A DNA stretch of 64,000 bases, from positions 248,001 to 312,000 of the forward strand of contig NZ_CP118612.1 in NCBI RefSeq assembly GCF_028993555.1, given 5' to 3'. Position numbers and translations under genes: made by a program. The notes under the pieces were generated by a model, which was not told where the DNA came from, did not search any database, and saw only the letters and a list, made by a program, of their open reading frames with translations. Every line of letters starts with the position of its first letter. Within the stretch, counting starts at the first letter, position 1. Below are positions 3,036-28,595 of the stretch, in pieces. Origin of the DNA: Ensifer adhaerens. Its GTDB lineage: Bacteria; Pseudomonadota; Alphaproteobacteria; Rhizobiales; Rhizobiaceae.

Positions 3036-4985
3036 TTACGTGTCGTTGCCTCGCGCTTTGCGCCAGTCTGCTATTGGCTTCTTGTCAGCGACGCCCGTTT
3101 CGATCACGAGAACGCTGTCGAAGACGTCGGCCCCGCCTTCAGATTGTATCGACGAAATATCATGCATGATCGCAACCACCGTGGCCTGTGGGCAATGTTC
3201 TTTGATTGACTTATGGAACGCTTGAACCGCCTGGCCATCAAGTGCGCTTGTCGCCTCGTCGAGAAAGATCAAACCCGGCTTCAGCAACAGGATTTTTGCA
3301 AGGACGAGTTTCTGCTTTTCACCCCCGGACAGAAGTTTGTCCCAATGTTGCCCCTCGCGACCTTCGCTCGAAAGCTCGCCAGCAAACTCTTCGAGCCCGG
3401 CCTCTTCCAACGCGCTCACGACGGCTGCGTCGCCATGCACCGCGGCCTCATCCGGTAGACAGACGAGGTCCTTCAGGCAAACTCCTTGGAGCTTGACGTC
3501 TTGAGCGGCGAAAAGAGTTCTTACAGTGTCGGGGGTTGCGATCAGGCCGCGGCCGTGCGCCCAAAGGCCGTTTATCGCCTTGAGAAGTGAGGTCTTCCCA
3601 CTGCCCGATTCACCGATCATCAACGTCCATTCGCCGGGAGCGAAATCCAGCTTCTCGACGCTCAGAAACGGTTTGTCGTCGCCGGTATGCAAGAGCTCGA
3701 CGGATTGGATGCTCAACCCTCGTGCGCCGTCCTGCGTTGCGTACTCAAACGCCGAAGGTCCGCTTCGGGCATAATAATCTTGCGGCCGTTGCACCGTTTC
3801 TATCGCTTGCGCAAGTTCTGTTATGCGGCGTGCGTCCGCCCTTAACGTTGCAATGTCGGGCATCGCATGAATGAACCAAGAGCATTCATTGATGAGGGCC
3901 GTCGCAAGCTCGGCGCCGGTGACATATTCCTGGAGGCTGATGGTCTTGTCGACGTAAGGCAAAAGACCGGGTGCATAGGCGACGATGCGTGAGCCGATGA
4001 AATTGTGCACGAGTTCAAAGCCCATGTAGCCCGCAGTTACCCGGTTGAGGCTCGCCCAGGTTTGGTCGATATCTCGATACCGTCGCCCGTGGAGTGTCTT
4101 TTGCGCCGGTTCGCCCCTGATGACCGCAACGTGAAAACTGCGGTGCAACAATTGGTTCAACTCGCTGCGATAGCTGCCTTCGGCCGATTGGATGCGGAGC
4201 GAGAGGCCTTGCAGGATTCCGCCGAGCCTGGCTGCGATAAATGTATTGAGCGGTACATAGATCGCGATCGCGAGTAGCGTCAGGCAGGCGCTTCCGTAGC
4301 TGCCGAGGAAATCAAGTCCTCTGACGGAGCTCGAAGTTTCGATCAGCTTGCCCCCGACGAACCCGAGCGACAGCACAACTCCGGCAATTCCCACGCCAAG
4401 CCCGATCGCACCGCCCGTCATGCCCTTTATTGCCTCCTGCACCCTCTGATCGATGTTGTCGGGCGATGAAGACTCTGTCTCGCTCGAGGCACCAAACCCG
4501 TTCTGCTGCAGGTGGAAGTGCGTGTGATTGGAATCCAGGAGCGCTTGGTTGAAACGTTCGTCCAACCACTGGCGCCATTTTCGGTGGAGGGTGGTCGAAA
4601 AAAAATGTCGTACCGCAGTGAACCCCGCGTCCCTCGTAATCGCAATTGCGGCAAGTGTTGCTGCCGTGCTCAGGAGTGACGAGGGGGAGGTGGGAACAGT
4701 GGGATGATGAAAATTGGCGATCCGATTGACCAGTTCGCCAGAGGTCAACGCAAACCAGACACTTGCTTGAGCTGACAATCCTGTGAGCAGCAGGATGAGA
4801 AATGTCAGGCTCCAGGCCTCGCGCCAACGCTCGGAAAGCCAGTAGGCCAGCAACAGGCCCCAGAAACTGCGCATGGAGGAAACAGGGCTGCGTGGTCGCC
4901 GCCGTTTCCCTCCGGAGGGCCATTTGACCAGTGCTGTTGCCCGTTGTGCGTTGCTGCGCACGACATCGCTCAAACTCATCTTCAT
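3036..4985 (-). CDS. ABC transporter with fused membrane and ATPase domains, SbmA/BacA-YddA type
   Basis: The 649-residue protein has an N-terminal membrane domain of the ABC_membrane_2 type, with several hydrophobic segments over about residues 40-340, and a C-terminal nucleotide-binding domain. Walker A is GESGSGKTS near residue 460, the signature LSGGEKQKL near 550 and Walker B LIFLDEATSALD near 573. Proteins of this family (YddA, Rv1819c, BclA) move peptides or cobalamin-like compounds, and rhizobial BclA protects against plant NCR peptides. Its ATG overlaps the stop of the upstream degenerate reading frame by 4 bases. The substrate cannot be read from sequence. Confidence 0.85.
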   Translation of the reverse strand: MKMSLSDVVRSNAQRATALVKWPSGGKRRRPRSPVSSMRSFWGLLLAYWLSERWREAWSLTFLILLLTGLSAQASVWFALTSGELVNRIANFHHPTVPTSPSSLLSTAATLAAIAITRDAGFTAVRHFFSTTLHRKWRQWLDERFNQALLDSNHTHFHLQQNGFGASSETESSSPDNIDQRVQEAIKGMTGGAIGLGVGIAGVVLSLGFVGGKLIETSSSVRGLDFLGSYGSACLTLLAIAIYVPLNTFIAARLGGILQGLSLRIQSAEGSYRSELNQLLHRSFHVAVIRGEPAQKTLHGRRYRDIDQTWASLNRVTAGYMGFELVHNFIGSRIVAYAPGLLPYVDKTISLQEYVTGAELATALINECSWFIHAMPDIATLRADARRITELAQAIETVQRPQDYYARSGPSAFEYATQDGARGLSIQSVELLHTGDDKPFLSVEKLDFAPGEWTLMIGESGSGKTSLLKAINGLWAHGRGLIATPDTVRTLFAAQDVKLQGVCLKDLVCLPDEAAVHGDAAVVSALEEAGLEEFAGELSSEGREGQHWDKLLSGGEKQKLVLAKILLLKPGLIFLDEATSALDGQAVQAFHKSIKEHCPQATVVAIMHDISSIQSEGGADVFDSVLVIETGVADKKPIADWRKARGNDT

Positions 4986-5401
4986 GACTTGGGGCGGGGA
5001 TCAGGCTTGTCAAACTCGAATCTTGTCGCCAGCAACGGACGGCGCGCAGGTACTCCGATGGAATGCAGCGCACGTTTGATGGCGATGGAGTCGAGCGGGT
5101 GCAGGAGCCTGACCACGTCGAGCACTGTTTGATCTTGGCTCGTTGCATAAGAATGTGCATATCGAAGCCGTCGAAGCCCTAGTCGAACTCTCTTGAAGTT
5201 ACGCTGTAGCCGGCGCATGGGATATCCGGCGCCAGCGGCCTCCAGCGGTCTGCAAGGCGCGGCGTGAATGTTGCGAAACTCGTAGGAGGAGTACCGATAT
5301 CCGCGCTGGAGCGGAGTCAGTGGGGCGCTCGCTCGCCCCCCTTCACAAAAGAAAGTGTCGATGCCGGCGCCCGAGACACGATGATGTCGAACATTGTCCA
5401 T
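4982..5401 (-). pseudogene. Degenerate alpha/beta-hydrolase (epoxide hydrolase-like) remnant
   Basis: The frame opens MDNVRHHRVSGAGIDTFFCE and continues with a damaged LLHGFP-like segment and SSYEFRN, which matches the N-terminus of epoxide-hydrolase-type alpha/beta hydrolases. After FRNIHAA the expected 'LADRWRPLAPDIP' appears in another frame, so a one-base shift has occurred. No nucleophile elbow or later catalytic residues remain. The last 60 residues of the open frame are not recognisable as hydrolase. The stop overlaps the ABC transporter start, so the frame may still help translate that gene. Confidence 0.6.
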
Positions 5402-5534
5402 CGAAAATCTTCTTCCTTCGATTATGAGGTGTGGTAAGCGAACCGATGCAGCGCAGTCTTAGTTGCCCAAACCTAGCACCGCCTGGCTCCTGTGCGCATT
5501 GGAGCAGCGCCTTCCAGATCGGGCAGAGGCAGGC

Positions 5535-6509
5535 CTAGTCGACGAAGTCGACGGTGACTCCAGGTTTGACCATTGCCGCTAGTTCTTCCGCGTCCCAGTT
5601 CGTCAGCCGGATGCATCCGTGCGATCCGGATTTATCTATCAATGAGGGCTCCGGCGTGCCGTGAATGCCGTAGGTTGGTTGCGAGAGGTCAATCCAGACG
5701 CTGCCGACCGGGCTGTTGGGACCGCCAGGCAATGTCATGATTTTCTTGTTTGTGCCCTGCCGGAAGTTAACTTTGGGATTGTAGGTATAGGGCGGCATCC
5801 GAACCACGCCTTTGATCTTCTGCGTGCCGGACGGGGAAGGGTTTTCCTCGCTCCCGATGGTGGCGGGATAGGCCGCAATAAGCGTTCCGTCGTCGGCGAA
5901 GGCCAGCAATTGTCTCGTTCGCTTATGCGCCTCAATGCGCTTCACGGAACCTTGCCTCGGACTATCGGGTATCGCGACCCAGATCGTTTCTCCGGCAACA
6001 AACTTGGCAGCTGGATTGAGCTCCGTTAGAAGGTGTTCATCCATGTGAAAGCGCTCGGCGAGCTTCTCGACGATGCCTGTATAACCCAGCCGCTCCATCT
6101 TGGCCTGTTCCGAATAATCCTTCGGGATGGCTGGGACCAAGCCTTCTGCGTCGCCCTGCGAAATGGCATAGGGCTCAACCGCCGGTCGTTGGTCCGAAAG
6201 TCGGTCGATCACATCCGGATCCAGTCTCCCGTCTAAGGGCAGATGCTGCATTGCCTCGAACGCCGCAATCGCTTTGGCTACGTTCTGGCCGTCGTATCCG
6301 TCTATGACCCCGGGAGACGTGCCCGCTCGATCGAGAAGTATCTGGAGCCGCGTAACAGCGGGGTCGGGTGCTTGTGCTGGCGTGTTCGATTGATTTGATG
6401 GAAGGGCGACAATCATAGCATTGTTGATATCGTCCGGCTTAAGCGGCTGGCCTAGGGCAATTCCTTGGAAGGCTATAAGCAGCAAGGCCGCAAGAGCGAT
6501 GTTGTTCAT
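5535..6509 (-). CDS. L,D-transpeptidase with peptidoglycan-binding domain, exported
   Basis: From ATG 6509, preceded by GAGGA, the protein is 324 residues. The first 20 residues form a signal peptide ending near IALGQP. A peptidoglycan-binding-like domain follows (TRLQILLDRAGTSPGVIDGY to about residue 100), and the YkuD catalytic domain ends with HGTPEP, then SHGCIRLTN holding the catalytic Cys near residue 296. These periplasmic enzymes make 3-3 crosslinks or attach proteins to peptidoglycan. An in-frame ATG at 6521 is an alternative start. The EcfG-type promoter at 6599-6623 suggests stress induction. Confidence 0.88.
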   Translation of the reverse strand: MNNIALAALLLIAFQGIALGQPLKPDDINNAMIVALPSNQSNTPAQAPDPAVTRLQILLDRAGTSPGVIDGYDGQNVAKAIAAFEAMQHLPLDGRLDPDVIDRLSDQRPAVEPYAISQGDAEGLVPAIPKDYSEQAKMERLGYTGIVEKLAERFHMDEHLLTELNPAAKFVAGETIWVAIPDSPRQGSVKRIEAHKRTRQLLAFADDGTLIAAYPATIGSEENPSPSGTQKIKGVVRMPPYTYNPKVNFRQGTNKKIMTLPGGPNSPVGSVWIDLSQPTYGIHGTPEPSLIDKSGSHGCIRLTNWDAEELAAMVKPGVTVDFVD

Positions 6510-19091: not shown

Positions 19092-19393
19092 GACGCGGGG
19101 GGGGCGAAGCGGGGTTGGAAATCCGCGCGGGAACGATTGCCGTCGACGCGCGTTTTTGCTGACTGAAGATCAAAGGTTTGAAGAGGTCGCGGCGGCAGAG
19201 AGAGGTCTGTGCGCACACTTGGCATTTGGTTCCGGTTATGCTTGCGCAACGGATTGCGCCGCGTACAACGTGCGTCGATACGGAATGAGAAAAGGTTGGC
19301 TTCCCCTTGCGCAAGGTCTATCCTTTTGGTGGCCTCCTCGCGGAAGGCGACGAGCAAATCCGAACTCGCAATGGTTTGACGGCTGGGACGAAG
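19092..19393. other. Gap upstream of the receiver module, nothing recognised
   Basis: I see no gene here with a start signal or family match, and no GGAAC-N18-TT element pointing at the receiver operon. Confidence 0.4.
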
Positions 19394-19627
19394 ATGGCTT
19401 CGGTCAAGAAGACGAGCGACGACGCCGAGAAAATTTTCACAACCGACGCTACGGACCAGCCCGTTGGCGCCGGATGCGCCGAAGTCGACGATATTCCGGA
19501 TCGTCTGCTGATACTTGCAAACAGGCTGCAAAAAGCGCTCGACTCGCGCAGAGTGGCCCATGGCGAACACCCCCGGCTTCAAGAAGAATTGAGGCGGTCA
19601 TTAAAGCGGATCGAGGACGAGAAATGA
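19394..19627 (+). CDS. Small acidic protein overlapping the receiver gene, possibly NepR-like
   Basis: From ATG 19394 the product is 77 residues: an acidic, Thr-rich N-terminus (MASVKKTSDDAEKIFTTDAT) and a helical second half, VDDIPDRLLILANRLQKALD. The PDRLLxLxxRLxxAL pattern recalls the second helix of NepR anti-sigma factors (EPVPDRFxxLLxxL), but the first NepR helix is not visible. The stop codon overlaps the start of the receiver protein (ATGA), implying translational coupling. The start lacks a good ribosome site. The NepR link is inference only. Confidence 0.5.
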   Translation: MASVKKTSDDAEKIFTTDATDQPVGAGCAEVDDIPDRLLILANRLQKALDSRRVAHGEHPRLQEELRRSLKRIEDEK

Positions 19628-20238
19628 TGCGCGACCTGCAGCAATTGCGGGTATTGGTTGCCGAGGATGAATTCCTCGTCGCAAACGACATTGCGCTGTT
19701 GTTGGAGGAGGCAGGAGCAACCATCATAGGCCCGACACCTACGGTACAAGAGGCGTTGAAAAGCCTTTCGGTTGCGGAAAACATCCAGGTTGCCGTTCTC
19801 GACATCAATCTGAACGGCGAGTTGATCTATCCCGTTGCCGACGAACTCGCACGCCGTTCGGTTCCGCTTATCTTCTTCAGCGGCTATGAATCTTTGAATC
19901 TTCCCGAGCGTTTCAGTAGTTCGGCACGCCTTAGTAAATGTGTCAGCGCCTCGGATCTCGTCAGCGCCGTCTTTGAACAGCATCTTCAGAATTTGTCGAC
20001 GTTGATGCCTGTTGGGACCGAATTCCATGAGTACAGCATTGTCGACCTCGTGCCCGGGCTTCGCTTAAGGGCACGCCGACTGATGGTGAACGTGGCAGCG
20101 GCCGATGGTCTGGTCGAGCGCACGCTCGAGCGAGCCATTGTTCTGGCGCCGACCAGGCGAAGGTCCCAGCCGCTTGGTGAGTGGCTTCACGCGCTGATGG
20201 CGATCATCCACAGCGAAAGTCCTTTTGGACCCAATTGA
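19624..20238 (+). CDS. Receiver domain fused to a sigma-region-2-like C-terminus
   Basis: The 204-residue protein starts MMRDLQQLRVLVAEDEFLVA. Residues of about 6-118 are a receiver: acidic pair AEDE, phospho-acceptor Asp in VAVLDINLNG, Ser in FFSGY, Lys in SKCVS. Residues of about 138-195 (SIVDLVPGLRLRARRLMVNV, then a stretch with AADGLVERTLERAI and PLGEWLHALM) align with region 2 of the ECF sigma at 21776 (VVDLIPALRAFAR, EADDLLQETLFRAL, LKSWLFTIM). PhyR has a sigma-like domain N-terminal to its receiver. Here the order is reversed and region 4 is missing. It is coupled to the small gene at 19394. Confidence 0.8.
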   Translation: MMRDLQQLRVLVAEDEFLVANDIALLLEEAGATIIGPTPTVQEALKSLSVAENIQVAVLDINLNGELIYPVADELARRSVPLIFFSGYESLNLPERFSSSARLSKCVSASDLVSAVFEQHLQNLSTLMPVGTEFHEYSIVDLVPGLRLRARRLMVNVAAADGLVERTLERAIVLAPTRRRSQPLGEWLHALMAIIHSESPFGPN

Positions 20239-21775: not shown

Positions 21776-22294
21776 TCAGGGAACTGGAACGCCGCCCATC
21801 CGGTAGGCAAGTTCGTCGCGCGCTCGGCTGAGCCTGCTCTTAATGGTGCCGACTGCACAGTCGCAGATGTCGGCCGCTTCCTTGTAGCTTAGACCATATC
21901 CAGCAACCAGGATCAGCACTTCGCGATGATCGGGCGCCATGGCTTCGAGCGCGCCGCGCAGTTCGTGGGTCAAGACGCACCAGTCCTGCGATGCCGGCAT
22001 CGGGATCGGTAGCTCGGCGCAATTGACGGGGCCCGGCGCTTCGCGTCGACGCAGCTTGTACTGAGTTCGAAAAGCGTTGTGCATGATGGTGAAAAGCCAG
22101 GATTTTAGGTTGGTTCCAGGCTCAAAGCCGTCAATGCCGCGCAATGCTCGAAAGAGCGTTTCCTGTAACAGATCATCCGCTTCGCAACTCGACGACACGA
22201 ACGTGCGTGCAAACGCCCGAAGGGCCGGAATGAGGTCGACAACCTGGGTCTCCAGCGGCGGAGGCCGCTGGTTCGTTTGGTGTATAACAGGCAT
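21776..22294 (-). CDS. ECF sigma factor, EcfG/ECF15 general-stress type
   Basis: From ATG 22294 the protein is 172 residues. Region 2 is VVDLIPALRAFARTFVSSSC to WLFTIMHNAFRTQYKLRRR, and region 4 is MAPDHREVLILVAGYGLSYK followed by EAADICDCAVGTIKSRLSRA. The ICDCAVGTIKSR helix and size match EcfG/RpoE2-type sigmas of Alphaproteobacteria. These are normally held by NepR and released by phospho-PhyR. Neither canonical partner is in the window; the receiver module at 19394-20238 is the only candidate. Its own promoter matches its own target motif, suggesting autoregulation. Confidence 0.88.
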   Translation of the reverse strand: MPVIHQTNQRPPPLETQVVDLIPALRAFARTFVSSSCEADDLLQETLFRALRGIDGFEPGTNLKSWLFTIMHNAFRTQYKLRRREAPGPVNCAELPIPMPASQDWCVLTHELRGALEAMAPDHREVLILVAGYGLSYKEAADICDCAVGTIKSRLSRARDELAYRMGGVPVP

Positions 22295-22335
22295 TGAAGC
22301 TTGCCTTTCGCAACAGTGCAATGGGCTCCTCTAAC

Positions 22336-22529: not shown

Positions 22530-24626
22530 CTAATCGTGCGGCTCCAGCCGATCCTTCGGAACAACGAGGTGTATGACGAGCCCATCGGGATGCCACTCGC
22601 GCAGGATTTCTCCCCCGAATTGCTTTTCAATGGTTAGTTTCGCGAGCTTCGTGCCGAAACCTTCAGCCGTTGTTTCGACGACCGGCGGGCCGCCGCGCTC
22701 GGTCCAGATCAGTTCGAGCGAAGCCCCTCGGTCAATGCAATCGAGGTCGAGATAGCCAGTGTCCGTTGAAAGCGCCCCATATTTGGCGGCGTTGGTCGCA
22801 AACTCATGTACGACGAGCGAAAAGCCGGTGATCGCCGCGCGCGAGACACCCAGATCGCATCCCCGCGTCGTCACCCGGCGCAGGCCCCGGCCGTTCTCGC
22901 CGTCATATGGCGACAGGATTGTGGCAAGGAGCGGCTGCAGGTTGGCCCGACCTTCGCTTGAACCATCGCCAAGGGGCGCTGGCAAGGTGAGCACGTGGGC
23001 CCGGGCCAGCGATCCCAATCGTGCGACAACAGCAGAGGCGAGTTCGTCGGTCGACGTTGCCGATTTGGCGCTCAGCGATACCACGCTGCTCGATACCATA
23101 AACAGGTTCTTGACCCTATGCGCCATCTCCTGGATCAGCAGGTCCTTTTGCTGTTCAGCTTGCTTGCGTTCGCTGATGTCGCGGGCAATCTTCGAGGCGC
23201 CAATGACCACGCCGGCATTGTCGCGGATTGGCGAGATCCTGAGCGAGATCGGCATCAACCCGCCATCCTTGCGCTGCCGGAGTGTCTCGAAGTGATCAAC
23301 GCGGTGGCCAGAGCGCACTTGTGCCAGGAAGTCCAGCTCCTCGCCCTGGCGATCATCGGGAATCAAAAGCGTGACCGATCTTCCGATGGTCTCTTCGGCC
23401 GTATAGCCGTAGAGCCGCTCGGCGCCCGCGTTCCAACTGCTGATGATGCCATCCAAGTCCATTGATAGGATTGCGTCTTCCGAGGATTCGACGATCGCGG
23501 CAAGCTGGTGGGCGGCATGTTCGGCCTGCCGGCGGACGGCGACCTCACGCTCGGCGGCCTTGAGCAAGTGGGCGTTGTCGATCGCGATTGCGGCATGAGC
23601 GGCGATGGAGGTCACCGCGTTCTCCGCGTCGGCGGCAAAGATGCCGGGTAGATCATGACCGAAGAACAACCCGCCATGCACCTCGCCCGAACGCGAAACC
23701 ACCGGAACTGCCAGATAGCTGACGACCGGCAGATGCCCTTTTGGCATGCCGAAATGCGGTGCCGATTGGCCATAGCGCGGGTCGACACGGATATCGTCCG
23801 AGCGCACAACACCCAGACCGCGGAACGTCGGCTCGAACACGGCGGTATTGCGAGGCAGCTGGAACTTGTCGAAAGCCGCGCGCGGAGCTCCCGAAAGTGC
23901 GTAGAGTGTGTAGTGCTCGCCTTGTGGGTCGATGAGATTGTAGAAAAAGGCACCGAATTTTGCGCCGGTAAGTTCGGTTGCCGCGTCCGTCACCGTCTGT
24001 ACGATGCGATCGAGATCGAGATTGCTGGCTATCGCCTTTGCAATCCGGTCGACCGCCTCCAGCCGGCGTTCGGCAGCCTTGCGCTGGGAGATATCGAGAA
24101 TGCTGACATAGGCGCGCTCGTGGTGTGCTCCCTCGAAAGTAATCGTGAAGACAACGTCCAATCGCCGTCCTCGCAGCGTGCGAAGAACAGTGTCGCTACC
24201 AAATCGCCGGCGTCCTTCCCAGATCGTTATCAACTCTTCCATGAAAATCGGCGCCGTTTCGGGGAGGAAAACGTTTGCGAGCGATCTTAGCAGCTCGCCC
24301 TTCTCGGCCGCCTCGAACAGCTCCACCGTGAATGGGTTGACGTCGATGATGCGCACGCGCGCTATCGCCTCGTCCAGTCGGTCAGGGTGCGCCTCAAGAT
24401 AGGCACGCAGATCCTCAATGCCGTCGGACCGAAACGTCTTGAGGAGCTCGGATACGCCGGAAAAATCCTGTTCCCACACGGCGACCCCAGCGTATTCGAA
24501 AATGTCGCGAAACCTTCTTTCGCTGTCACGAAAGGCCTGTTCAGATGCCTTGGGATCGCTGATTTCGACCAGCATTTTGGTTGCTCCCACGAACTCCGGT
24601 GACATGTCATCATCGACGGCAGGCAC
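22530..24626 (-). CDS. PAS-GAF-PAS HWE-family sensor histidine kinase
   Basis: The 698-residue cytoplasmic protein has a PAS-like domain (about residues 30-180), a GAF domain (about 195-345, with AIASNLDLDRIVQTVTDAA), a second PAS (about 370-490, DAILSMDLDGIISSWNAGAE) and an HWE kinase core. The phospho-acceptor His is in EMAHRVKNLF near residue 502, and the ATPase part has HEFATNAAKYGALS and ELIWTERGGP. HWE kinases typically phosphorylate FATGUY-type receivers in the general stress pathway. It follows the hybrid kinase by 93 bases. Confidence 0.9.
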   Translation of the reverse strand: MPAVDDDMSPEFVGATKMLVEISDPKASEQAFRDSERRFRDIFEYAGVAVWEQDFSGVSELLKTFRSDGIEDLRAYLEAHPDRLDEAIARVRIIDVNPFTVELFEAAEKGELLRSLANVFLPETAPIFMEELITIWEGRRRFGSDTVLRTLRGRRLDVVFTITFEGAHHERAYVSILDISQRKAAERRLEAVDRIAKAIASNLDLDRIVQTVTDAATELTGAKFGAFFYNLIDPQGEHYTLYALSGAPRAAFDKFQLPRNTAVFEPTFRGLGVVRSDDIRVDPRYGQSAPHFGMPKGHLPVVSYLAVPVVSRSGEVHGGLFFGHDLPGIFAADAENAVTSIAAHAAIAIDNAHLLKAAEREVAVRRQAEHAAHQLAAIVESSEDAILSMDLDGIISSWNAGAERLYGYTAEETIGRSVTLLIPDDRQGEELDFLAQVRSGHRVDHFETLRQRKDGGLMPISLRISPIRDNAGVVIGASKIARDISERKQAEQQKDLLIQEMAHRVKNLFMVSSSVVSLSAKSATSTDELASAVVARLGSLARAHVLTLPAPLGDGSSEGRANLQPLLATILSPYDGENGRGLRRVTTRGCDLGVSRAAITGFSLVVHEFATNAAKYGALSTDTGYLDLDCIDRGASLELIWTERGGPPVVETTAEGFGTKLAKLTIEKQFGGEILREWHPDGLVIHLVVPKDRLEPHD

Positions 24627-24719: not shown

Positions 24720-27700
24720 TCAATGACGCAATCTAAGGACCGCATTGGACTTCGCTACAAGCAATGCTGCGGCCTCGATCAACTGCTGAGAAGTGAAAGG
24801 CTTCATCAGTAGCCTCGCGCCGGCAAAGCCCGTTGGCAGTGCCTCACGGCCGTAACCCGTGACGAAGACAAACGGGATTTTCTTCCGGGCCAAGGCGGCC
24901 GCGATCTCTCCGACCGATTGCCCGTGCAGGTTCGCGTCGACCATCGCCCCGTCCAATTGCTCCCGATCGATGATGCGCAACGCATCGTCTATCGTCGACG
25001 CCGGCCCCACCACATGGGCATGCTCGTCCTCAAGCACCGAGGCGATCTCAAAGGCAATCAGGGGCTCGTCTTCAATGATCGCAAATTTCTTTCCGTTGAT
25101 GTTCGCCGAACCCGAGTTCACGCCCAGCGGAGAGCCCTTCGATAAGGGACCCGCGGCCTCAGTTGGATTGCTTTCAATGAAATCCGGCTCCAGCGGAAGA
25201 ACGATCTCCCAACGTATCCCGTTTGCCTCGATCGAGCGATGCGCATGGCCGCCGCCGCCGCTTAGTACCTGCTCTATCAGCTTCGTTCCAAAACCCTGGT
25301 CGCCTAGCGACTTTACGGATGGTCCGCCTCGTTCTCGCCAGTCAAGGCGAAGAGTGTCGTCCTTCAGAACCCAGTCGATTGATACCGTGCCGGCCCGGGT
25401 CGAAAGCGAACCATACTTGACTGCATTGGTCCCGAGTTCGTGCACCATCATAGCCATATGCAGCGCCGTTTGCGGATCGAGCCTAATTGGCGGACCGGAG
25501 ACCACGACACGATCATCGTCAACCGCTCCAGGCAGCAGTTGATCGCGGAAAATGTCTTCCAGCTCCGCACCCTCCCAGCCGGTACGGCTCAAAAGCGAGT
25601 GCATTCGCGACATCGACTGAAGGCGCCCGCTGAAGCTCTCGGTGAAGGCCGCCGGATCCTTGGCTGAACGCAGCGTCTGCCGCGCAATCGCCTGTATCGA
25701 CGCGAGCATATTCTTGACCCGGTGACTGAGTTCGCTCAGCAAAAGCTGCTGGGTTTCTTCTGCACGCTTGCGGTCGGTAATGTCGCGGGCTGCGCCGAAC
25801 CACTCGATGATGTCTCCGTCGTTGCCGAGGAGGGGTACCGCACGCGAATGGGTCCATCCAAGACTTCCGTCAACCAGTATGACCCGGTGATCCATTTCGA
25901 AGGTAGTCTTGTTCCGGATGGCATCCTCGATATTCGTCAGGATATGTGTCTGATCGGCGGCAGGGATATATCTCTCGAGCCAACTGTCACTTGGATCCTC
26001 GGTGTCGGCCACAAAGTCCTTGCCTTGCAGGTATCGCATCTCCCGCCAGTCAGGGCTCATGCGATAGACGATGTCAGAGCTCGCTGTGACGTAGGCGCGA
26101 AACCGCTCCTCGCTTGCTCGCAAACTCTCCGCCGCTTTGGTTCGCTGATGGGCCATCTTGAGATGCGCCTCGACGCGCGCCAACAATTCACGTGCGCTGA
26201 ATGGCTTGATCAAGTAGTCGTCGGCGCCTGCCTGCATGCCCTCGATCCGGCTTTCTTCGCCGGCGCGTGCCGACAGAACGATGATTGGAATGGTGCTTGT
26301 TTGCTGGTCTGAACGAAGCCTCTCGAGCAATTCCAGTCCATCAAACCCTGGCATCATAACGTCTGTGAGAATGAGGTCCGGTCGTCGAGAAGCTATTGAA
26401 GCGAGTGCTGCTTGCCCATCGCCGACGACCGTCACGTCGTACTGGCCGCCGAGTAGACGGCGCATGTAGTCTCGCATGTCAGAGTTGTCATCCACGACCA
26501 ACAGGGACGGGCGGCGACCATTGCTCGCCTGCACTACGTGGGCAGCAGGTTCGACTTCGGATAGTTCTGCGTCTTGGTCTGAATCGGGCAGCCATCGAAG
26601 GGCCTCTTCCACGAAAGGCGAAATGCCAATTGCTGTTGATGGGCGACTGTCACCTGTGCCGGCTTGATCGGTTGCCAGGTGGCTGTTTCCTTGTGGGATG
26701 GCGACCCTTACAGTCGTGCCTTTGCCAAGATGGCTGTCGGCCGAGACCGTCCCACCGTGAAGCTTTACGAGTTCCTGAACAAAAGCCAGTCCGATGCCGG
26801 ATCCTTCCCGACTACGCCCCTTGGCGCCTTCGACGCGATGGAATCGCTCAAACAGTCGAGGCATTTCTTCGGGTGGAATACCGATTCCCGTATCGCAGAC
26901 CGTCAGAACGAAATTGTCTGCATCGGTCGTCAGCTTGACAGCGATCTCTCCTTCCAAGGTGAATTTGAAGGCATTGGAGAGAAGGTTGAGAACGATCTTT
27001 TCCCACATCTGACGATCGACGTGGGCCGGTGCGGGAAGCGGAGGCGTATCGACGGTCAGGCGCAATCCCGCTTTTTCCGTCGCGGATCGGAAGGCGCTTG
27101 CAAGTTCCGCCGTTGCTGAGGCGAGGTCGGTCGGCTCGAATTGCGCCTGCAGCCGTCCCGCCTCTATACGTGAGAATTCCAGCAGCGTGTTCACCAGCTT
27201 GAGCAGCCGGAGGGAATTGCGGTGAGCGATGAGCAGCCGCTCACGATCGCCGGGCAACCGGTCGCCTCGCGCTATCAGGTCTTCGATATGGCCGAGCATC
27301 AGCGTCAGCGGCGTGCGAAACTCGTGACTGACATTCGAAAAGAACACGGTCTTTGCGCGGTCGATCTCCGCCAGCGCTTCGGCGCGTTTGCGTTCGTCTT
27401 CATAAGACTGCGCATTTGATATCGCGCTTGCGACTTGCGCTTTCATGAGTTGCAGGAAGTCGTAATAATGCTCGTCCAGTTTCAAGCGTGGATTGATGCC
27501 AACGACCAGAAAGCCGGTTGCTTCCCGTGCGTTGGCGGCGGCCACCGGCAGCACGATTGCCGTGTGCGGAAGATCGCGTGGAGTTTCACCTGCAGTTGCC
27601 GGGAAACGCGAACCCAGATCATCCACGATTCTAAGTGCTAAGGTCGTGTCAAAGTGCCAGCCTTCGCCACTGTCGTGCTGCGTCAGCCTCACAGCTTGCG

Positions 27701-28424
27701 GGCACATTGCATGGCCATGCTCCAGGCCGGACAGCCCGGAAAGGCGCGCCCGTTTGCGGGCGGGATCGAGTAGGTAGAGAAGGGCGAAGGGAACATCCCT
27801 TTGGTGCTTTGCGAATGTCTCTGCGGCCGTCGTGCACGCTTCGATAGGTGTGCGCGCATCGCCCGAACGAGATGCCAGATCGCGAAGCACAACAATCCGG
27901 CGCTCTCCAATGACCTTGTCAGTAATTTCGGTCACGGTGGCGAGGACGCCGCCGATCCCGTTTTCGGCTGCTTCGTCAGGAACGGGGCTGTAGGCAATGG
28001 TGAAATGGGTCTCTTCGAGGAAGCCGTGCCGGTTGATCTCCAACTCGATGTCGTCGTTCCACGTCGCGGGCCCACCGTTGAACGGAGTGTCGATCAGTGG
28101 CTTCAGGATATGCCAGATCTCGCTCCAGCATTCACTGACCGGTTTGCCGAGCGCCCAGGAGTGCTTGGCGCCAAGTACCGGCCGATAGGCATCGTTGTAG
28201 ATTGAAACATATTGCGGCCCCCACCACAGCAGCAGCGGGAAGCGGTTCACCAGGAGGAAAGGGATCATGACCCTCAGCGTCGGCGACCATTGCTCCATTG
28301 GCCCGATGGGCGTCGCGGACCAGTCGTAGTCCTGAATCAAGGTTTCCATCTCGCCGTGGCCCGCAGGCGACGAAGCATCGATGAGGGGCTGGTCCCGGTC
28401 GGCCGTGCTTTTGGCGTCTGACAT
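24720..28424 (-). CDS. Large hybrid sensor kinase: GAF, HisKA kinase, receiver, PAS, HWE kinase, receiver
   Basis: ATG 28424 gives 1234 residues. In order: a PAS-like N-terminus (about 20-150), GAF (about 170-330), a HisKA/HATPase kinase with SNVSHEFRTPL near 363 and NLLSNAFKFT, receiver 1 with LLVVDDNSDMRDYM near 640 and DVMMPGFDG near 686, PAS (about 780-885), an HWE kinase with LSELSHRVKNML near 899 and HELGTNAVKYGSLS, and receiver 2 with FAIIEDEPLIAFEI near 1113, AMVDANLHG near 1160 and the FATGUY-like FVFVTGYG. Two kinase chemistries in one chain suggest signal integration onto the general stress pathway. An EcfG-type promoter lies 38 bases upstream. Confidence 0.9.
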   Translation of the reverse strand: MSDAKSTADRDQPLIDASSPAGHGEMETLIQDYDWSATPIGPMEQWSPTLRVMIPFLLVNRFPLLLWWGPQYVSIYNDAYRPVLGAKHSWALGKPVSECWSEIWHILKPLIDTPFNGGPATWNDDIELEINRHGFLEETHFTIAYSPVPDEAAENGIGGVLATVTEITDKVIGERRIVVLRDLASRSGDARTPIEACTTAAETFAKHQRDVPFALLYLLDPARKRARLSGLSGLEHGHAMCPQAVRLTQHDSGEGWHFDTTLALRIVDDLGSRFPATAGETPRDLPHTAIVLPVAAANAREATGFLVVGINPRLKLDEHYYDFLQLMKAQVASAISNAQSYEDERKRAEALAEIDRAKTVFFSNVSHEFRTPLTLMLGHIEDLIARGDRLPGDRERLLIAHRNSLRLLKLVNTLLEFSRIEAGRLQAQFEPTDLASATAELASAFRSATEKAGLRLTVDTPPLPAPAHVDRQMWEKIVLNLLSNAFKFTLEGEIAVKLTTDADNFVLTVCDTGIGIPPEEMPRLFERFHRVEGAKGRSREGSGIGLAFVQELVKLHGGTVSADSHLGKGTTVRVAIPQGNSHLATDQAGTGDSRPSTAIGISPFVEEALRWLPDSDQDAELSEVEPAAHVVQASNGRRPSLLVVDDNSDMRDYMRRLLGGQYDVTVVGDGQAALASIASRRPDLILTDVMMPGFDGLELLERLRSDQQTSTIPIIVLSARAGEESRIEGMQAGADDYLIKPFSARELLARVEAHLKMAHQRTKAAESLRASEERFRAYVTASSDIVYRMSPDWREMRYLQGKDFVADTEDPSDSWLERYIPAADQTHILTNIEDAIRNKTTFEMDHRVILVDGSLGWTHSRAVPLLGNDGDIIEWFGAARDITDRKRAEETQQLLLSELSHRVKNMLASIQAIARQTLRSAKDPAAFTESFSGRLQSMSRMHSLLSRTGWEGAELEDIFRDQLLPGAVDDDRVVVSGPPIRLDPQTALHMAMMVHELGTNAVKYGSLSTRAGTVSIDWVLKDDTLRLDWRERGGPSVKSLGDQGFGTKLIEQVLSGGGGHAHRSIEANGIRWEIVLPLEPDFIESNPTEAAGPLSKGSPLGVNSGSANINGKKFAIIEDEPLIAFEIASVLEDEHAHVVGPASTIDDALRIIDREQLDGAMVDANLHGQSVGEIAAALARKKIPFVFVTGYGREALPTGFAGARLLMKPFTSQQLIEAAALLVAKSNAVLRLRH

Positions 28425-28461
28425 GACGCGGATCCCCGATAGACTACGCTTAAGGACCTTA

Positions 28462-28486
28462 AACGCCAGGTACTGAAAACAGTTCC
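28462..28486 (-). promoter_or_regulatory. EcfG/RpoE2-type promoter for the hybrid kinase
   Basis: GGAAC (28486-28482), 16 bases, CGTT, that is N18 then TT at 28463-28462, on the minus strand. This implies feedback of the stress sigma on its sensor. Confidence 0.75.
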
Positions 28487-28569
28487 GATTCCGCGCTCGG
28501 CGGACTAAGTGAACTTGGGAGCGGGGTGTCCAGTAGACAATCACGGACCGCTTCGTGATCCGTGCCTGA

Positions 28570-28595
28570 GATCGCATAATGTATCGAATGGAAGG
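28570..28595 (+). repeat. Copy 1 of a dif-like short repeat
   Basis: GATCGCATAATGTATCGA at 28570-28587 is followed by ATGGAAGGGG. The same 18-base core recurs at 46287 and 54306. CGCATAATGTAT matches the XerC half and centre of bacterial dif sites; the XerD half is not matched. Confidence 0.6.

What the first reader, a model, noticed from the sequence alone, without database searches (positions are those of the whole stretch)
19394..20238. Receiver-sigma2 fusion in reverse PhyR order, coupled to a small NepR-like candidate
Seen: the C-terminal 60 residues after the receiver align with region 2 of the ECF sigma encoded 1.5 kb away (VDL-P-LR--AR, AD-L---TL-RA, L--WL---M). The upstream 77-residue gene overlaps by ATGA and carries IPDRLLILANRLQKAL. 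Known: PhyR is a sigma-like domain followed by a receiver and binds NepR when phosphorylated. Here the receiver comes first and region 4 is absent. Inferred: a compact partner-switch variant that could bind NepR or core polymerase in a new way. I know of no described protein with this order.
Basis: partly seen in the sequence, partly recalled or inferred. Interest (0 to 1): 0.8.

Follow-up and report, generated by a model that had tools for sequence, protein, structure and literature searches.

The report
Reversed, shortened PhyR-like stress switch
In a soil bacterium related to the nodulating Sinorhizobium, two overlapping small genes look like a slimmed-down, back-to-front version of the switch that turns on the general stress response; if it works as predicted, it would show how spare stress sigma factors are controlled.

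Summary
Window 19394-20238 encodes a 77-aa protein and, overlapping by ATGA, a 204-aa receiver plus sigma-region-2 protein without region 4. Pfam PhyR_sigma2 matches 15 of 16 aligned homologues, and the C-terminal model's best PDB matches are sigma region 2. The architecture recurs in several alphaproteobacterial families. A small NepR-like gene lies within 1 kb of it in 24 of 32 loci, recovered also when each clade is left out of the profile; its NepR relation rests. Twenty linked EcfG-type sigmas fall apart from 14 canonical nepR-linked EcfG. A region-2.2 signature that I recall as a core-polymerase contact is kept in 48 of 48 sigmas and lost in 34 of 34 receiver-sigma2 rows. Most likely it is a phosphorylation-controlled sigma decoy that pulls a NepR-like anti-sigma off an RpoE5/EcfG2-type sigma: a PhyR analogue in reversed order with half the decoy, perhaps of separate origin. 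Binding is not shown. Five answered searches of open papers showed me no description of it; most subscription papers are not held.

The parts
19394..19627 (+). 77-aa NepR-like small protein (proposed anti-sigma factor)
   Evidence: a relative lies within 1 kb of the receiver-sigma2 gene in all 10 same-genus genomes that carry that gene
19493..19540 (+). NepR helix-2-like motif IPDRLLILANRLQKAL
   Evidence: P35, A42 and L45 invariant in 25 aligned small proteins
19624..20238 (+). 204-aa receiver-sigma2 response regulator (proposed phospho-controlled decoy, anti-anti-sigma)
19651..19968 (+). receiver domain (residues 10-115); E14, D15, D60 and K105 invariant in 16 homologues
20038..20217 (+). 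sigma-region-2-like three-helix domain (residues 139-198); core-binding signature lost
19130..19154 (+). EcfG-type promoter-like box GGAAC-N17-GTT, 264 nt before the 77-aa gene
   Evidence: that this is the EcfG-type motif is recalled
21776..22321 (-). EcfG-type (RpoE5-like) sigma factor, proposed target
22530..24626 (-). GAF-PAS-HWE histidine kinase, candidate phosphodonor
24720..28577 (-). hybrid HisKA-REC-PAS-HWE-REC kinase, candidate phosphodonor or phosphorelay

Best explanation
The gene pair is a minimal, PhyR-like partner switch. The 77-aa NepR-like protein is an anti-sigma factor that holds the linked RpoE5/EcfG2-type sigma (21776-22321). The 204-aa protein is its antagonist: a receiver phosphorylated by a neighbouring HWE kinase, with a C-terminal sigma-region-2 decoy that binds the NepR-like protein and frees the sigma. 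Shown here: domain content and order, predicted fold of the decoy, loss of the sigma core-binding signature, NepR relationship of the partner, conserved gene linkage, a group of EcfG-type sigmas linked to it, and stress-type promoter boxes. Inferred: the binding, the direction of the phosphorylation effect, and which sigma is controlled. Group profiles and a short tree suggest that the decoy came from an EcfG-type sigma joined to a Sma0114-like receiver, not from a reshuffled PhyR.
Against: No binding data. The window's 77-aa protein alone reaches only E 1.1 with the NepR profile; Pfam NepR hits neither it nor any of ten relatives. The small gene is under weaker selection (pN/pS 0.40-0.73) than the receiver gene (0.16-0.21). 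No small gene was found within the held flanks in 5 of 32 loci (L035, L038, L041, L091, and L052 apart from a weak hit about 5.5 kb off, E 0.011), and it lies 1.5, 5.7 and 22 kb away in 3 genomes. Four rows of the small-protein alignment (L191, L192, L197, L059) were first admitted by eye on position and motif (core-profile E 0.37 to 8), although they score E 4e-4 or better in a model built without them. S. meliloti, S. fredii and M. loti have sigma and small gene but no receiver-sigma2 gene within 4 kb, so the third part is not obligatory; R. etli, R. leguminosarum, A. tumefaciens and Roseinatronobacter sigmas have neither. Helix alpha4 of PhyR is reported to help NepR binding (PMC12148442, passages), and I saw no counterpart tested here. 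In M. extorquens some NepR paralogues bind PhyR but no EcfG (PMC4814048, passages).
Confidence: 0.68

Rival explanations
1. Feedback antagonist: the NepR-like protein does not bind the linked sigma but competes for PhyR or for the receiver-sigma2 protein, so the pair tunes the canonical PhyR-NepR-EcfG system of the same cell rather than running a switch of its own.
For: M. extorquens NepR paralogues bind PhyR but none of its EcfG proteins in two-hybrid tests (PMC4814048, passages). The genome has two canonical NepR and two PhyR.
Against: The small family is also found directly beside the linked type of sigma, and those sigmas form their own group, which points to a private set.
Confidence: 0.14
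2. Phosphate sink or hub: only the receiver matters, as in single-domain receivers of HWE kinases, and the sigma2 tail is a relic or stability domain.
For: By sequence the receiver is closest to Sma0114-type 2lpm (E 9e-17), with SdrG at E 3e-9 (the name Sma0114 is recalled).
Against: The tail has invariant residues across families, keeps the predicted sigma2 fold, belongs to a protein under purifying selection (pN/pS 0.16-0.21), and travels with a NepR-like gene.
Confidence: 0.1
3. Split sigma subunit: the protein supplies region 2 to polymerase, as RsoA does for SigO.
For: A split sigma pair with separate regions 2 and 4 exists (PMC8103513, passages).
Against: Region 2.2 signature lost in 34 of 34 rows and region 2.4 missing; the neighbouring sigma has its own regions 2 and 4.
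Confidence: 0.04
4. Receiver plus ANTAR-like RNA-binding output (antiterminator).
For: The full-length Foldseek list includes Rv1626 and EutV.
Against: Those alignments have rmsd 11-14 over the whole chain; no ANTAR Pfam hit; the C-terminal model alone matches sigma region 2.
Confidence: 0.02

Closest known systems
PhyR-NepR-EcfG partner switch of the alphaproteobacterial general stress response
   Same: Receiver joined to a sigma mimic, small NepR-like protein, EcfG-type sigma, HWE kinases nearby, GGAAC-type promoter boxes, close gene linkage
   Different: Receiver first, decoy last; region 4 absent; the NepR-like partner keeps mainly the helix-2 part; the linked sigma is of a separate group; the decoy scores better with EcfG-type sigmas than with PhyR in 27 of 28 cases
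S. meliloti RpoE5 with its NepR-like neighbour ORF (PMC6180224, passages)
   Same: Sigma of the same type (72% identity to the window sigma) and same small-protein family; that our locus is rpoE5 is inferred
   Different: No receiver-sigma2 gene seen within 4 kb there
R. etli EcfG2, non-canonical plasmid EcfG (PMC3892343, passages)
   Same: EcfG-type plasmid sigma that falls with linked sigmas rather than with canonical EcfG in the tree
   Different: No NepR-like or receiver-sigma2 gene found within 4 kb; its authors also report no response regulator or anti-sigma gene nearby
Single-domain receivers Sma0114, SdrG, MrrA
   Same: Receiver type
   Different: No sigma2 domain in the solved Sma0114-type and SdrG chains, 118-130 residues long; MrrA is called single-domain in its paper's title

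Membership tests
PhyR | sigma-like domain N-terminal to the receiver | tested here: not met
   receiver at 10-115, sigma2 at 139-198
PhyR | sigma-like domain with both regions 2 and 4 | tested here: not met
   no region 4; chain ends at 204
PhyR | core contacts of the sigma mimic degenerate | tested here: met
   signature lost in 34 of 34 rows, as in 30 of 30 PhyR rows
PhyR | phosphorylatable receiver | tested here: met
   E14, D15, D60 and K105 invariant in 16; by residues only, phosphorylation itself not tested
PhyR | binds NepR when phosphorylated | not testable with these tools
   needs protein work
NepR (77-aa protein) | match to Pfam NepR over its cut-off | tested here: not met
   no match for the window protein or ten relatives
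NepR (77-aa protein) | profile similarity to NepR helix 2 | tested here: met
   as a family; the window protein alone E 1.1
NepR (77-aa protein) | helix 1 (L28 and Y32 invariant in 18 NepR) | tested here: not met
   the aligned window residues differ; some relatives such as L033 align better
NepR (77-aa protein) | binds an EcfG sigma and a PhyR-type decoy | not testable with these tools
   needs protein work
EcfG / ECF15 sigma (21776-22321) | closer to EcfG than to other ECF sigmas of the genome | tested here: met
   42% identity to canonical EcfG against 34-37% to three other ECFs, and grouped with EcfG in the tree; RpoE5, its probable S. meliloti relative, is placed in ECF15

The most novel reading that the evidence does not exclude
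Sigma mimicry evolved twice in Alphaproteobacteria: besides PhyR, a Sma0114-like receiver captured region 2 of an EcfG-type sigma and, with a NepR reduced mainly to one binding helix, formed a minimal switch that privately controls otherwise unexplained RpoE5/EcfG2-type sigmas.
Probability: 0.4. Interest if true: 0.85.

Novelty: new variant of a known kind. Interest (0 to 1): 0.72.

Why it matters
Half of the completed alphaproteobacterial genomes had two or more EcfG-like sigmas, and the extra copies had 'not satisfactorily been explained' (PMC3892343 abstract); [quoted passage not shown] This pair supplies a concrete, testable antagonist and anti-sigma for one group of them. It would also show that region 2 alone and mainly one NepR helix suffice for a partner switch, and that a sigma decoy can work from the other end of the receiver, which bears on how phosphorylation exposes the decoy.

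Tried and rejected
ANTAR output and split-sigma readings were considered and rejected (see rivals). Pfam and NCBIfam searches of the 77-aa protein and Pfam on ten relatives (up to E 10) gave no NepR match; only family profiles did. A relaxed motif scan within 2.5 kb of the gene in L035, L038, L041, L052, L091 and L190 printed no candidate. The order and class counts are lower bounds, because at most 10 or 8 candidates per genome were scored; 'without' therefore means 'not found'. The sigma2 tree has 59 columns and many weak forks, the linked-sigma label is not one group in it, and one receiver-sigma2 row (L196) falls beside PhyR; PhyR is a long branch, which lowers its profile scores. In one search, with seven more plasmid sigmas, sigmas with and without the receiver-sigma2 gene are mixed. 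Foldseek E-values of the C-terminal model are modest (0.022 and up, none under 0.001), and the VIA note warns that helical bundles can reach such Z by arrangement alone.

Rows dropped: 14 near-identical canonical EcfG before the tree; near-copies of canonical EcfG, L254, L256 and, by an unintended effect of my filter, the L200 sigma before the tree; sequences over 85% alike; receiver-only rows L044, L055 and L089 from the structure alignment. The 34 rows include L036, L198 and L199 (one Tistrella lineage) and the G007 C2 copy (L184), which reads in two frames.

Full report
What is there. The window is 248001-312000 of contig C3 of a 7.77-Mb genome; the nearest plasmid records are Sinorhizobium and Ensifer. 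The 77-aa ORF (19394-19627) and the 204-aa ORF (19624-20238) overlap by ATGA. The 204-aa protein has a receiver (Pfam E 6e-6, just under its cut-off) followed by a stretch that matches PhyR_sigma2 (E 6.7e-4, under its cut-off) and no region 4. The similarity to the ECF sigma 1.5 kb downstream is 20/57 identities.

The architecture is a conserved family. Full-length homologues occur in 10 of 16 same-genus genomes, own included, among 61 genomes searched; in 11 of 297 genomes of the order and 4 of 385 of the class, own included each time (lower bounds); and on plasmids of Mesorhizobium, Shinella, Martelella, Tistrella, Paracoccus and Roseivivax. Sixteen aligned members share receiver residues E14, D15, D60 and K105 and several residues of the sigma2 part. 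PhyR_sigma2 matches 15 of these 16, Sigma70_r2 one, weakly. In the annotated plasmid records that I opened it is called 'response regulator', 'response regulator receiver protein' or 'hypothetical protein'.

A decoy rather than a sigma. In an alignment of 28 canonical EcfG, 20 linked sigmas, 30 PhyR and 34 receiver-sigma2 rows (with near-copies), the region 2.2 stretch D-D-x-x-Q-E/D is kept in all 48 sigmas and lost in all 30 PhyR and all 34 receiver-sigma2 rows, where Q has become E, D or A. That these residues contact core polymerase is recalled. A review states that the PhyR mimic has degenerate core and promoter regions (PMC8103513, passages). The receiver-sigma2 chain also stops before the basic stretch that follows in the sigmas.

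The small partner. A motif like P-x-R-L-L-x-L-A-x-x-L-Q-x-A-L recurs beside the receiver-sigma2 gene. In 32 loci, non-redundant as far as I could judge by sequence and contig length, it lies within 1 kb in 24: 20 of 23 genomes, the others at 1.5, 5.7 and 22 kb, and 4 of 9 named records, L033, L034, L042 and L059. Because the profile was partly built from these loci, I left each clade out in turn: the left-out ORF came first in its own locus every time, E 0.0011 or better, against 1.6 or worse for the next ORF of the locus; the window's own ORF has E 9e-10 with all Ensifer rows out. In 80 loci drawn mainly by receivers, the only core-profile hits better than E 0.4 were L042 (9e-4) and L059 (0.37), two of the four that hold the full architecture. 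In 32 genomes, all 23 with a found receiver-sigma2 gene have the small gene and the 9 without show no hit better than E 0.06. Relation to NepR: the 25-row profile against all PDB sequences ranks NepR first and second (E 0.059, 0.083); hhalign score 32.8 (E 1.7e-5, probability 79%) against 18 NepR, 200 column shuffles at most 15.6, Ensifer rows alone 26.3; a NepR-only profile over 9,610 ORFs of these loci has small ORFs of this family in its first four places (E 3.6e-6, 0.0027, 0.0028, 0.0061) and the window's own at E 1.1. The same NepR profile in the control loci has one unrelated ORF at E 0.088. Pfam NepR does not hit single members. The match covers the helix-2 part of NepR; the window protein lacks the conserved helix-1 residues.

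The sigma. The neighbouring sigma is EcfG-like: 42% identical to the genome's canonical EcfG and 34-37% to three other ECFs. Twenty sigmas from receiver-sigma2 or small-gene loci fall on one side of a branch from 14 nepR-linked EcfG (93/99; 100% of 200 bootstrap trees). With seven further plasmid sigmas the nepR-EcfG group stays whole, while sigmas with and without a receiver-sigma2 gene are mixed. Listed relatives in S. meliloti, S. medicae and S. fredii are 72-75% identical (60 of 370 records listed). In S. meliloti, S. fredii and M. loti the small ORF lies convergently next to the sigma (small-family E 3e-14 to 1e-11; NepR profile E 5.9e-6 for S. fredii, 5.7e-4 for S. meliloti, 0.07 for M. 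loti), without a receiver-sigma2 gene in the 4-kb flanks. The authors of PMC6180224 had noticed an unannotated ORF similar to RsiA1/RsiA2 beside rpoE5 (passages). That our S. meliloti locus is rpoE5 is an inference from replicon size, sigma type and the convergent ORF.

Setting. Between 15.8 and 21.8 kb lie CsbD, DUF892, topoisomerase IB, DUF3309, DUF2934, CBS and HD genes, followed by the sigma and two HWE kinases. GGAAC-N17-GTT occurs 17 times in the window, all in the first 30 kb, against 0-5 for each other spacer from 12 to 23; for spacers 15-19 together there are 23 matches against a mean of 9.1 and a maximum of 17 in 100 shuffles. One box is 264 nt before the 77-aa gene; 6 of 15 upstream regions tested have an N17-GTT box (for L059 the region before the sigma was used). 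The motif as EcfG-type is recalled; the rpoE5 promoter in PMC6180224 also holds GGAAC.

Origin. Profiles of linked sigmas score receiver-sigma2 domains best in 24 of 28 non-redundant cases, EcfG in 3, PhyR in 1; in the tree 27 of 28 form one group apart from PhyR, with weak support (86/95). By sequence the receiver is nearest 2lpm (Sma0114, name recalled), E 9e-17, against 1e-4 for the best PhyR. This favours a separate origin from PhyR, with the caveats of a 59-column tree and a long PhyR branch.

Mechanism and limits. The simplest reading is a PhyR-like switch with fewer parts. No binding, phosphorylation or genetics was available. The alternative that the NepR-like protein acts on PhyR, as reported for M. 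extorquens paralogues (PMC4814048, passages), remains open. Literature: the paper tool first answered; five searches answered and seven did not. I saw their listings, passages of PMC4814048, PMC3892343, PMC8103513, PMC6180224 and PMC12148442, and part of the Results of the last; none of this describes a receiver-first sigma2 protein. Whole texts and most subscription papers were not read.

Noticed in passing
window 1-30000: A stress-gene island: 17 exact GGAAC-N17-GTT boxes, all in the first 30 kb, with CsbD, DUF892, DUF3309, DUF2934, CBS and topoisomerase IB genes.
   Followed up: partly
L184 (G007:C2, 9429-10077) and L257 (G008:C10, near 4808-5874): Second copies of the module that look damaged: in L184 the receiver-sigma2 gene reads in two frames; in L257 small gene and sigma are open but only about 24 residues of the receiver protein match nearby.
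   Followed up: no
L258:4564-4770 (-), L263:4613-4798 (-), L260:4541-4735 (-): NepR-like small ORFs convergent with RpoE5-type sigmas on S. meliloti, S. fredii and M. loti plasmids; in the S. meliloti record the stretch is annotated as a hypothetical protein.
   Followed up: partly
L059:5070-6529 (-): Compact run of sigma, NepR-like gene and receiver-sigma2 gene, followed by a CheB/HWE-like gene, in Rhizobium sp. CFBP 8762: a good model locus.
   Followed up: partly
last columns of alignment A1: Many receiver-sigma2 proteins end in a short similar tail such as LLN, LYLH or GPN; function unknown.
   Followed up: no
L196:9083-9823, L197:8500-9216: Two similar receiver-sigma2 proteins; L196, the one kept for the tree, falls beside PhyR there, possibly a second origin.
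   Followed up: no
L052:1095-1400 (+): Weak small-family hit (E 0.011) about 5.5 kb from the Tabrizicola receiver-sigma2 gene; could be a divergent partner.
   Followed up: no
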